NCBI RefSeq assembly: GCF_900182705.1
Contig: NZ_FXTP01000008.1
Span: forward strand, 62,001-126,000
DNA: 64,000 nt
Source: Gracilimonas mengyeensis
Lineage (GTDB): Bacteria > Bacteroidota > Rhodothermia > Balneolales > Balneolaceae
Reading direction: 5' to 3'
This document shows, in pieces, positions 31,515 through 34,615 of this stretch (position 1 is its first letter; each line of letters begins with the position of its first letter). The notes below the pieces were generated by a model. It searched no databases. It had not been told where the DNA came from and saw nothing but the letters and a program-made list of their open reading frames with translations. Both the position numbers and the translations under genes were made by a program.

Positions 31515-32570
31515 TCACTGTCGCGATTGCCTTTCCCACTTCTCTGCAAAGCGGGCGTATTCCTCAGCCTTCTCCGTTTTTCCTGCCCTTTGGTAAGCTT
31601 CTGAAACCATCGTGGAGGCCAAAGCCAGCCGCTGGTAATCATTGCTTGTAGGGGTTGCTACTGTGCCTTCCAGCTCGGGCACCTCAAGTCCCATACTTGG
31701 ATACAGCTGATCGGGATCGTCTTCCAGAGTTTCGTTGGCTTGGAATAGCAGCGGCCAAAAGCCGGATTCCCCATACACTTTTTCAGCAATCACCCAATAC
31801 CATTCGCCCGATTCTACTTGGTAAGTTTCCGGCGTATCAACCGATCCGGTAGCCCTTTGTTCAGTAGTTTCCGGATTTTCTGGCAAACTATCACTTTGGG
31901 GCTCGGTGGCTTGTGGCGAATCCGCTTGTCCGACCTGTTCTGTGTTGGTTTCCTCCGAATTCTCTTCCATGGCCACATCATCCATAGTTTCGGTGGCTTC
32001 AGGCGTCTGAGGAGTTTCTATCGCGGCCTGATCGGTGGCCGGAGTCTCCTCATCAGCCGTCATCAAAAACCAGCCGGAGGCCAAAGCTACAATCACTAAC
32101 AGCAGCAATGCTGCAATCATAAGCCCTGAATTATCATTGTCTTTTTTGCGGGAAGATGGAGAGACGGGCTCCTTTTTCGCCTCAGCCTCTTTAGGTGGAG
32201 GAGTTACTTCCGATTCTTGCTCATCTGTACCGGATTCTTCTTCCAATAGTTCGGTTTCAAGATGGGCAAAAGGTGCATTTACGCGTTCACGCAGAGGTTT
32301 ATACGCGGAGAAATTCACGCGTTTATGTGCCGGGATGGTAATAGGCTCGCCGGTTTGGGGATTTTGTCCCTGACGCTCGGCCACTTCCTTCACCGTAAAA
32401 CTACCAAAATTGGTGATTACAGCCTTGCCGTTTTCATCCAGATCTTGTTTCGCAAGGCCTATCACCCCTTTGATAAACTCCTCGCTCTTACTCTTGCTAA
32501 AGCCGGTTTTCCTAGATAGTGCCTCTACAATTTCCGTGTACGTAACCTTATTGCTCATCCTCGCCCTCAT
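31515..32570 (-). CDS. HU-type DNA-binding domain fused to a membrane segment and a LysM-like domain
   Basis: 351 residues from the ATG at 32570; an ATG at 32558 (MSNKVTYTEI) overlapping the upstream gene by 11 bases is equally likely. Residues 5-97 are a full HU/IHF domain (ENGKAVITNFGSFTVKEVAE, RQGQNPQTGEPITIPAHKRV, VNFSAYKPLRERVN). A charged linker ends in RKKDNDNSG before one membrane helix (about 149-170). An E/T/Q/P-rich stretch (171-245) then leads to a LysM-like domain (about 249-300: YQVESGEWYWVIAEKVYGES, FWPLLFQAN, MGLEVP). A helical tail closes the protein. By the positive-inside rule HU faces the cytoplasm and LysM the periplasm, so it could link the nucleoid to the cell wall. Downstream gene of a two-gene HU operon. 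Confidence 0.85.
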   Translation of the reverse strand: MRARMSNKVTYTEIVEALSRKTGFSKSKSEEFIKGVIGLAKQDLDENGKAVITNFGSFTVKEVAERQGQNPQTGEPITIPAHKRVNFSAYKPLRERVNAPFAHLETELLEEESGTDEQESEVTPPPKEAEAKKEPVSPSSRKKDNDNSGLMIAALLLLVIVALASGWFLMTADEETPATDQAAIETPQTPEATETMDDVAMEENSEETNTEQVGQADSPQATEPQSDSLPENPETTEQRATGSVDTPETYQVESGEWYWVIAEKVYGESGFWPLLFQANETLEDDPDQLYPSMGLEVPELEGTVATPTSNDYQRLALASTMVSEAYQRAGKTEKAEEYARFAEKWERQSRQ

Positions 32571-32838
32571 TTAATTCATCACGCAGCACACTGCTTTGCT
32601 TAAAATGCACCACCTTTTTGGGCGGTATCTTCATCATTTGCTGGTAATGTGGATTATAGGATTTGTGTTCCGTCCTCACTTCAGCATGGAAGCTTCCCAA
32701 GCCCGGCAAGGTAAAGCCACGGTTGTTGGATAACAGGGTAATCATGCCCTCCACAAAAGAATCGTACAGCTGATCGGTTTCCTCCTGCGTCAGATCTAAT
32801 TCTTCTGCAAGTTGTTTTATTACGTCGGCTTTGGTCAT
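32548..32838 (-). CDS. HU-family DNA-binding protein
   Basis: 96 residues, normal HU/IHF size. The fold order is MTKADVIKQLAEELDLTQEE, LYDSFVEGMITLL, FTLPGLGSFHAEVRTEHKSY and PPKKVVHFKQSSVLRDELN. The DNA-intercalating arm is atypical (HKSYNPHYQQMMKIPPKK instead of the usual RNPxTG), so binding mode may differ. Its end overlaps the membrane-anchored HU gene, so both are probably translated from one mRNA and could form heterodimers. Confidence 0.85.
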   Translation of the reverse strand: MTKADVIKQLAEELDLTQEETDQLYDSFVEGMITLLSNNRGFTLPGLGSFHAEVRTEHKSYNPHYQQMMKIPPKKVVHFKQSSVLRDELNEGEDEQ

Positions 32839-33011: not shown

Positions 33012-34445
33012 CTACTTCATCAGCGTCATTTTACGGGTGAGTGCCGTTTGACCGGCACGCAGGCGATAAATGTATAAACCACTGGAAAGACCGGCCCCGT
33101 CAAAACGTACGGTATGAGGTCCGGCTTGTCTTTGGCCGTTGGCCAACACCGCTACTTCCTGCCCCAGCATGTTGTAGACTCTCAGGTCAACCTCTGCCAC
33201 ATTGGGAAGTTGATAGGTTATTTCTGTGGATGGATTAAAAGGATTGGGATAATTTTGTTGAAGCTTTATGGCGTTTGGCCCCTGGCTGTTTTGTTCGGTG
33301 CTGGTGGCTAATGATTCAAACGTGTAGATATTGCCGTCAAAGCCGCCAAAGTAGAGTTCTTGGTTTTGATCTTCCCCAAACATAATAAGCAAGCCGCCAC
33401 CAAGATTATCAATCAGCTGATTATCCGAAGCCGTTTCTCCATCCCAGGCCAACGACCAAAGATTGCCGGACACAAAATCGCCATAAACGTAGCGTCCATA
33501 TAAGTCAGGGATATCTTCCCCGCGGTATACAAATCCTCCAGTGATTGAACCACCTTCCGAACGACCGTATTCATATACAGGAAGCTCTCTTCCTTCGGTT
33601 TCACACCCATCCGATGGTTCGTAGCACAAGCTTCCTTCCATGGTATTCCAGCCATAATTCAGGCCTTTTTCCACCACATCAATTTCTTCGCGGGTGGATT
33701 GCCCCACGTCTCCAACCCAAAGCTCGCCTGTTTCCGCGTCAAAACTAAACCGGTAGGGATTACGAAGTCCATATGCATAAATTTCTTCCCGGTATCCTTC
33801 ACTGTTGTCAACAAAAGGATTATCTGCAGGGATGCCGTAATTAAGGTCGCCTTCGGTTTCATCCACATCAATCCGCAAAATAGAGCCTAACAAAGTAGTG
33901 CGGTCCTCGCCGTTATCTTCCGGATCTCCACCGCTGCCTCCGTCGCCAAGAGCGATATACAGGTAGCCGTCGGGACCAAAGCGAATTTGCCCGGCGTTAT
34001 GGTTGGTATAGGGTTGATCCACTTCTAACAACACCTGTTCTGTGCCTTCATCAGCGGCCCCACCTGCCTCAGGGACTTCAAAACGGGACACCACCGAACG
34101 GAAAGGATCGGCCGCTGTGTAATAGACATACACATAAAGATTGTTCTCATAATCAGGATGAAAGGCAAAACCCAGCAAGCCTCCTTCCCCTGTCGTTTCT
34201 ACCTGATCTGAAATATCCAGAAATTCGGTTGTTTCAGATGCGCCTGAACTATTCTCAAAGAACACTATCTGTCCGCTCCGTTCGGCCACAAACACCCGTG
34301 AATCACTTTCCATAGCGTATTGGTAATCAATAGGGGCGTTAAAACTGAGGTTGGGATAAGCATTTACTACCTCGAATTGGGCAGAAGCATTTACAGAGAT
34401 CAGCGCAAAAATAACTACGAACAGGAAGTAATACAGTCGTTTCAT
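33012..34445 (-). CDS. Secreted PQQ-type sugar (glucose/sorbosone) dehydrogenase with T9SS sorting domain
   Basis: 477 residues from the ATG at 34445, chosen because it directly precedes a signal peptide (KRLYYFLFVVIFALISVNASA) and follows AAAGGT; an in-frame start at 34532 adds 29 residues without signal character. The beta-propeller carries NHNAGQIRFGPDGYLYIALG, GDGGSGGDPEDNGEDRTTLLG, YAYGLRNPYRFSFD, ELWVGDVGQSTREEID and GLNYGWNTMEGSLCY, the soluble aldose sugar dehydrogenase family. These oxidise sugars with PQQ and calcium. The C-terminus (NYPNPFNPSTEITYQLP...MTLMK) is a Type IX type A sorting domain, so the enzyme is exported to the surface. Confidence 0.9.
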   Translation of the reverse strand: MKRLYYFLFVVIFALISVNASAQFEVVNAYPNLSFNAPIDYQYAMESDSRVFVAERSGQIVFFENSSGASETTEFLDISDQVETTGEGGLLGFAFHPDYENNLYVYVYYTAADPFRSVVSRFEVPEAGGAADEGTEQVLLEVDQPYTNHNAGQIRFGPDGYLYIALGDGGSGGDPEDNGEDRTTLLGSILRIDVDETEGDLNYGIPADNPFVDNSEGYREEIYAYGLRNPYRFSFDAETGELWVGDVGQSTREEIDVVEKGLNYGWNTMEGSLCYEPSDGCETEGRELPVYEYGRSEGGSITGGFVYRGEDIPDLYGRYVYGDFVSGNLWSLAWDGETASDNQLIDNLGGGLLIMFGEDQNQELYFGGFDGNIYTFESLATSTEQNSQGPNAIKLQQNYPNPFNPSTEITYQLPNVAEVDLRVYNMLGQEVAVLANGQRQAGPHTVRFDGAGLSSGLYIYRLRAGQTALTRKMTLMK

Positions 34446-34615
34446 AGGCATACCTTTTGTTAGCTTGTATAGATCTAACACATTTAATGCCAATATGTTT
34501 CCCTTACGACTACGGCTATAAAATTCTAACAATATTTAGTAAAAATAAGCCGGCGTGAAGATGACTTTTACCGATTACACATACTTGTCGCAAAAACAAC
34601 TTTTGGGATATCGTC

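What the first reader, a model, noticed from the sequence alone, without database searches (positions are those of the whole stretch)
31515..32570. Membrane-anchored HU protein with a periplasmic LysM-like domain
An HU/IHF DNA-binding domain, a basic stretch, one membrane helix, an acidic linker and a LysM-like module occur in one chain. Together they could physically connect chromosomal DNA with peptidoglycan. It is encoded with a second small HU with an atypical arm, a possible heterodimer partner. HU fused to peptidoglycan-binding modules such as SPOR occurs in Bacteroidota; the LysM form seems little described.
Basis: partly seen in the sequence, partly recalled or inferred. Interest (0 to 1): 0.68.

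Follow-up and report, generated by a model that had tools for sequence, protein, structure and literature searches.

The report
Membrane HU protein with LysM tail
In one bacterial family a DNA-packaging protein is fused through the cell membrane to a likely cell-wall-binding module and is encoded together with a small partner DNA-packaging protein, so it could be a direct rope between chromosome and cell wall, although no function has been tested.

Summary
Observation confirmed. The minus-strand gene 31515-32558 (start more likely 32558 than 32570) encodes HU, acidic linker, one membrane helix, acidic linker, a Kbp-type LysM fold and a helical hairpin. A 96-residue HU with an atypical arm lies directly upstream, overlapping by 11 bases. 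It is not chance: 74 of 92 held genomes of the window's family carry the fusion, 72 of 74 in one frame; the small HU is beside it in 71 of 74 and the other three are contig ends. No full-length match in the 152 other genomes of the class. LysM rests on NCBIfam, PDB sequence and fold, and profile comparison; Pfam LysM does not reach it and the window's loop is altered. New here: the same genome has a parallel pair, half-HU plus HU-acidic-TM-SPOR, seen across the order; some other Bacteroidota fuse both HU domains and SPOR in one chain. Likeliest function: a heteromeric, wall-tethered HU linking nucleoid and peptidoglycan (inferred). HU arms keep the tip proline; a charge-complementarity test for heterodimers was negative. 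A new, family-specific variant of a known kind, envelope-anchored HU.

The parts
31515..32558 (-). HU-TM-LysM protein (347 aa plus stop from the likely start 32558; the ORF can be read from 32570)
32271..32546 (-). HU/IHF domain, residues about 5-96 of the 347-aa form, with a full-length arm (AERQGQNPQTGEPITIPAHK)
   Evidence: PF00216, model elements 7-100, PDB HU 5lvt Z 9.6
32130..32270 (-). cytoplasmic acidic, proline-rich linker (residues 97-143) ending in RKK before the membrane helix; mostly pLDDT below 50
32055..32129 (-). single transmembrane helix, model residues 144-168
31842..32054 (-). predicted periplasmic acidic, disordered linker (residues 169-239)
   Evidence: 170-239 pLDDT below 50
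31665..31841 (-). Kbp-type LysM domain, residues about 240-298 of the 347-aa form
31521..31646 (-). C-terminal helical hairpin, model residues 305-346, no family found
32548..32838 (-). small partner HU (96 aa plus stop), atypical arm with NPHY motif; overlaps the next gene by 11 bases

Best explanation
A bitopic inner-membrane HU. Its cytoplasmic HU head, together with the HU partner encoded by the overlapping upstream gene, forms a DNA-bending dimer. A flexible acidic linker and one membrane helix carry the chain into the periplasm, where the LysM module with its helical hairpin holds on to peptidoglycan or another envelope structure. The pair thereby ties the nucleoid to the cell wall, as the SPOR-form pair of the same genome may do at denuded glycan. 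Shown by computation: the domains, the predicted topology, one clade for each HU, the fixed gene pair, and retention of the arm-tip proline. Inferred: dimerisation with the partner, DNA binding, peptidoglycan binding, and a role in nucleoid anchoring or segregation.
For: One-frame architecture in 72 of 74 carrier genomes; the other two are a contig end (G244) and a broken frame (G216) (the profiles were built from the family itself). Partner beside it in 71 of 74; the other three are contig ends, and G237 has its partner at the end of another contig. 22 of 22 loci of named Balneolales/Rhodothermia records have the pair, some being the same genomes. Of ORFs of 110 aa or more in 28 loci with wide flanks, only HU-LysM itself is in all 28. 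The tip proline is kept in 70 of 71 assessable HU-LysM arms and 69 of 71 partner arms. HU-LysM heads and partners are each one side of a branch (99/97 and 100/100), apart from housekeeping HU and SPOR-form HU. The same two-gene logic with SPOR is in the same genome and the order and occurs as a tandem-HU-SPOR chain in some other Bacteroidota. FimV, with acidic cytoplasmic part, TM and periplasmic LysM, binds peptidoglycan through LysM (PMC12918733, abstract and passages).
Against: No binding datum exists. HU-LysM heads and partners are not basic (median net charge 0, n 72, and -1.5, n 70; arm region +2, n 64, and +3, n 61) against 12 housekeeping HU of the same family (-1 to +5; arm +4 in all 12). 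The LysM loop is canonical in 37 of 74, has a tryptophan instead in 24 including the window, and fits neither pattern in 13. The nearest solved LysM is Kbp, to my recollection a cytoplasmic K+ binder. Net charges of the two HU proteins do not compensate (63 pairs, PIC r -0.03, p 0.84). 18 of 92 family genomes lack both genes by the searches used, 8 of them at 95% completeness or more, so it is dispensable. In G251 both arms are lost and in G246 the partner's tip proline is lost while the pair persists.
Confidence: 0.45

Rival explanations
1. Membrane-anchored nucleoid protein without a cell-wall grip: HU and partner bind DNA at the membrane, and the Kbp-type LysM-hairpin module binds a periplasmic protein or an ion, or only stabilises the chain.
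For: Kbp is the nearest solved LysM; Pfam LysM is not reached; the loop motif is non-canonical in 37 of 74, including the window.
Against: 37 of 74 keep a canonical G[DEQ][TS]L loop; the parallel gene pair ends in SPOR, a family I know as peptidoglycan-binding.
Confidence: 0.25
2. The HU pair serves protein-protein contact rather than DNA binding, as the HTH domain of RodZ does (recalled), and the protein organises an envelope complex.
For: Near-neutral HU heads; the SPOR-form HU matches PF00216 only over positions 4-51 of 90, that is without the arm (sequences); both arms lost in G251.
Against: Full arms with the tip proline in 70 of 71 heads; R62, G64, P67, T69, I75, P76 and K87 invariant in the 23-row alignment.
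Confidence: 0.15
3. A trans-membrane regulator: cell-wall state sensed by LysM changes DNA binding of the HU head and hence transcription.
For: Architecture compatible with one-component membrane regulators (inference only).
Against: HU binds with little sequence specificity (general knowledge); no other gene (110 aa or more) is beside the pair in all 28 loci; long disordered linkers would transmit a signal poorly.
Confidence: 0.1

Closest known systems
HU-CCDC81_bac_1/_2 + SPOR proteins of Bacteroidota (Pfam PF18174, PF18175, PF05036)
   Same: HU units in the cytoplasm, a hydrophobic segment (by eye), C-terminal peptidoglycan-binding module; two HU units together (fused there, two genes here)
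   Different: SPOR instead of LysM; HU domains are divergent, whereas this HU is a canonical PF00216 with full arm. The tree compared SPOR-form heads of the window's family only, and these are not grouped with the LysM-form heads
half-HU / HU-TM-SPOR gene pair of the same genome (contig C3, locus L037)
   Same: small HU gene directly upstream, acidic linker, TM, envelope module
   Different: partner is a half HU of about 65 aa; matches throughout the order rather than in one family; located beside an ExbB/TolQ-like gene (by eye)
HubP/FimV polar landmark proteins
   Same: periplasmic LysM, one TM, long acidic cytoplasmic stretch; LysM of FimV binds peptidoglycan (PMC12918733)
   Different: reverse order (N-terminus outside), TPR head instead of HU
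Kbp/YgaU
   Same: LysM subtype, closest in sequence and fold
   Different: BON plus LysM (recalled), no HU, no membrane helix

Membership tests
HU/IHF (PF00216) | HU profile over the whole domain, including the beta-arm with tip proline | tested here: met
   E 5.5e-24 positions 2-90; 23 of 23 homologues; fold Z 9.6, rmsd 3.7, 91 residues; P67 invariant in A1
HU/IHF (PF00216) | DNA binding | not testable with these tools
   arm residues conserved; arm less basic than in housekeeping HU
LysM | beta-alpha-alpha-beta fold and profile similarity | tested here: met
   Pfam PF01476 itself not reached
LysM | N-acetylglucosamine / peptidoglycan binding | not testable with these tools
   canonical loop in 37 of 74, altered in the window
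HU-CCDC81-SPOR | HU-CCDC81_bac_1/_2 domains over the Pfam cut-off | tested here: not met
   neither listed for the HU-LysM protein at E<=1, partner hits both weakly below cut-off; but 4 of 23 homologues match bac_2 at E<=0.01, best 0.0011
HU-CCDC81-SPOR | C-terminal SPOR | tested here: not met
   no SPOR; profile comparison with SPOR probability 0.4
Kbp/YgaU | BON domain and NCBIfam cut-off | tested here: not met
   36.4 bits against cut-off 134, LysM part only; no BON at E<=1
HubP/FimV | N-terminal periplasmic LysM and C-terminal cytoplasmic TPR | tested here: not met
   HU first and LysM last; family features from PMC12918733

The most novel reading that the evidence does not exclude
A dedicated, heterodimeric, cell-wall-anchored nucleoid protein: one polypeptide that spans from chromosomal DNA to peptidoglycan, with DNA-bending arms kept intact and a co-translated HU partner, giving Balneolaceae a direct mechanical link between nucleoid and sacculus in addition to the SPOR-form pair.
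Probability: 0.4. Interest if true: 0.8.

Novelty: new variant of a known kind. Interest (0 to 1): 0.55.

Why it matters
How bacterial chromosomes are held relative to the envelope is known mostly through multi-protein systems such as HubP-ParA (recalled). A single chain with a DNA-bending head and a wall-binding tail would make nucleoid-to-wall tethering testable with one gene pair, in an order that has two parallel versions (LysM in one family, SPOR throughout). The two-gene/one-chain comparison with other Bacteroidota also gives a concrete reason to test HU heterodimers as the working unit.

Tried and rejected
Charge complementarity between head and partner: looked strong by eye in the first pairs, but vanished in 63 distinct pairs with phylogenetic contrasts (PIC r -0.03, p 0.84). 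Rejected as evidence. The same call gave one unplanned positive among 13 tests, partner charge against linker charge (PIC r 0.35, p 0.005, uncorrected), not interpreted.

HU-LysM as a recent duplicate of the HU-SPOR pair: not supported; the heads are separate groups and no sister relation is resolved (few columns).

Occurrence on mobile elements: tblastn against plasmids (1453 records matched) and phages (47 records) gave no record with one place covering 80% of the query; the 8 rows listed for each cover the HU part only.

Occurrence elsewhere: the genome-contig scan used one pattern of the partner (YNPHY...), so it cannot exclude HU-LysM chains without that partner in other phyla. The class search at E<=1e-16 found only HU-part matches outside the family (21 of 152 genomes); it scored at most 7 candidates a genome, so a distant or low-ranking relative could be missed. 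No viral-contig scan was made.

Arm-tip count: my first pattern counted the cut fragment of G211 by a false match in the linker; recounted (69 by pattern, G214 read by eye, G251 lost, G211 not assessable).

Partner structure: folded without alignment, mean pLDDT 63.8, not used for claims; alignment A2 would have been the better input. The LysM-plus-hairpin stretch matched no Pfam family at E<=10. The fold list is filled mostly by HU rows, so nothing is said about what the hairpin resembles. The promoter/terminator scan was near its shuffled expectation (3 against 1.9, 4 against 2.4) and is not used.

Literature: the HU-superfamily paper that I recall (Burroughs and colleagues 2017, Cell Cycle) is not held, so the published HU-SPOR claims are recalled, not read. 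Searches of the open library returned nothing; 16 (28 papers, 20 listed), 49 (3) and 79 (11, 8 listed) gave listings in which I saw no HU-LysM chain; only PMC12918733 was opened (abstract and passages). This is no proof of absence in print.

Full report
Check of the observation. The minus-strand frame 31515-32570 is open for 351 residues. The 23 homologues in alignment A1 begin at its fifth residue, so the likely start is 32558. The N-terminus is an ordinary HU/IHF domain (PF00216 E 5.5e-24). An acidic, proline-rich linker ends in RKK. One hydrophobic segment follows, then a second acidic linker, a globular part and a helical tail. AlphaFold2 with the 23 sequences gives a confident HU fold, a helix at 144-168, low-confidence linkers, a beta-alpha-alpha-beta module (245-292, block means 84 to 96) and a helical hairpin (305-346).

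The LysM claim. Pfam's LysM model does not reach the protein or its relatives (at E<=1, at E<=10, 0 of 23 at E<=0.01; a whole-genome PF01476 search at E<=1 lists 8 places, none here). Other evidence agrees: the LysM part of NCBIfam PRK11198 (Kbp/YgaU) E 6.5e-9; PDB Kbp E 9.4e-6 and TsaP E 0.013 by sequence; fold match to the Kbp part of 7vcm, Z 6.8, rmsd 1.5 over 53 residues at 34% identity, with chains of contractile injection baseplates after it (Z under 8 alone would be weak); and a profile-profile match of the 74-sequence family to six LysM domains of the same genome at probability 92, E 6.4e-7, with a SPOR control at probability 0.4. So it is a LysM of the Kbp type. The loop motif G[DEQ][TS]L is present in 37 of 74 members; in 24, including the window, a tryptophan stands there, and 13 fit neither pattern, some of them near-canonical.

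Topology. In 23 of 23 homologues exactly one 19-residue window group exceeds hydropathy 1.6, so there is no second, N-terminal hydrophobic segment; lysine plus arginine in the 15 residues before it outnumber those after it in 21, are equal in 1 and fewer in 1. This predicts HU in the cytoplasm and LysM outside.

Conservation and gene pair. A profile search of the 128 held genomes of the order found the fusion in 74 of 92 genomes of the window's family and in 0 of 36 of the four other families (counted from its table as matches reaching beyond the HU part). In the class, matches at E<=1e-16 outside the family (21 of 152 genomes) cover the HU part only. In the census of the 74, with profiles built from the family, 72 show HU, one TM and LysM in one frame (G211 and G237 with the HU cut by a contig end); G244 is cut by a contig end and G216 is broken before LysM. 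The small HU is beside it in 71 of 74; G211 and G244 end at the contig edge, and G237 has its partner at the end of another contig. Spacing between the genes is mostly -4 to -11 bases (range -28 to +3 where both frames are whole), which suggests translational coupling. All 22 loci from named records (Gracilimonas, Balneola, Fodinibius/Aliifodinibius, Rhodohalobacter and unnamed Balneolaceae, Balneolales or Rhodothermia bins) show the pair; several are the same genomes as in the census. No genome of the order has the partner without the fusion. In 28 loci with wider flanks the only ORF cluster of 110 aa or more found in all 28 is HU-LysM itself (the partner is below that length); a HemW-like gene is in 17, a carbonic-anhydrase-like gene in 15, an aconitase-like gene in 8, a Dabb-like gene in 7 (names by eye). 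So the pair has kept together in two different neighbourhoods.

HU heads. HU-LysM heads (20 rows) and partners (21 rows) each form one group, apart from the housekeeping HU and from SPOR-form HU (few columns). The arm keeps the tip proline in 70 of 71 assessable heads and 69 of 71 partners. In G251 both arms are gone, and in G246 the partner's proline is gone. The arm regions are less basic (median +2 and +3) than in 12 housekeeping HU of the family (+4).

A parallel system in the same genome. On contig C3 (298137-300047) a half-HU of about 65 aa is directly followed by HU-acidic linker-TM-SPOR (568 aa; SPOR E 1.1e-9). Matches to it occur in 124 of 128 genomes of the order, some to one end only; in the 30 best loci the half-HU is upstream in 30 of 30 (29, L148). 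Of 118 genomes drawn from the phylum, 18 carry HU-CCDC81_bac_1 over its cut-off. Of 6 such proteins scanned, from 20 loci, 5 match bac_1, bac_2 and SPOR in one chain at E<=0.01 (4 over all three cut-offs), and L186 has no SPOR hit. This fusion is an argument that the two separately encoded HU units act together. Genomes without the LysM pair (for example G175, G069, G077) keep the SPOR-form gene, so the LysM pair can be absent while the SPOR form stays.

Mechanism. The most likely reading is a heteromeric HU head at the membrane tied to the cell wall by LysM. DNA binding, partner binding and wall binding are inferred. I tested one prediction of heterodimerisation, charge compensation, and it failed. 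The closest working analogue is HubP/FimV; the periplasmic LysM of P. putida FimV binds peptidoglycan (PMC12918733, abstract and passages), but the order of domains is reversed and the head is TPR.

Verdict. Real, conserved, confined to one family in the genomes searched, not found in the papers I could search, and a new variant of envelope-anchored HU proteins rather than a new kind.

Noticed in passing
L037:3135-5042 (contig C3, same genome): Second pair: half-HU of about 65 aa followed by HU-acidic-TM-SPOR, next to an ExbB/TolQ-like gene (by eye); matches in 124 of 128 genomes of the order.
   Followed up: yes
L187 (G251): HU-LysM head and its partner have both lost the DNA-binding arm while the gene pair and the membrane architecture persist.
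   Followed up: partly
L235 (G216): The HU-LysM frame is broken before LysM; could be a sequencing error or a decaying gene.
   Followed up: no
L004:1465-1785 (contig C8, 150754-151026): A further divergent HU (106 aa) beside YqgF-like and peptide deformylase-like genes (names by eye), on the same contig as the window.
   Followed up: no
31521-31646: Conserved C-terminal helical hairpin after LysM with no family match; in part of the family (for example L024, L026, L028) a longer, differently patterned tail stands there.
   Followed up: no
33012-34532: Upstream gene looks like a secreted glucose/sorbosone-dehydrogenase-like protein with a C-terminal T9SS-type sorting region (by eye).
   Followed up: no
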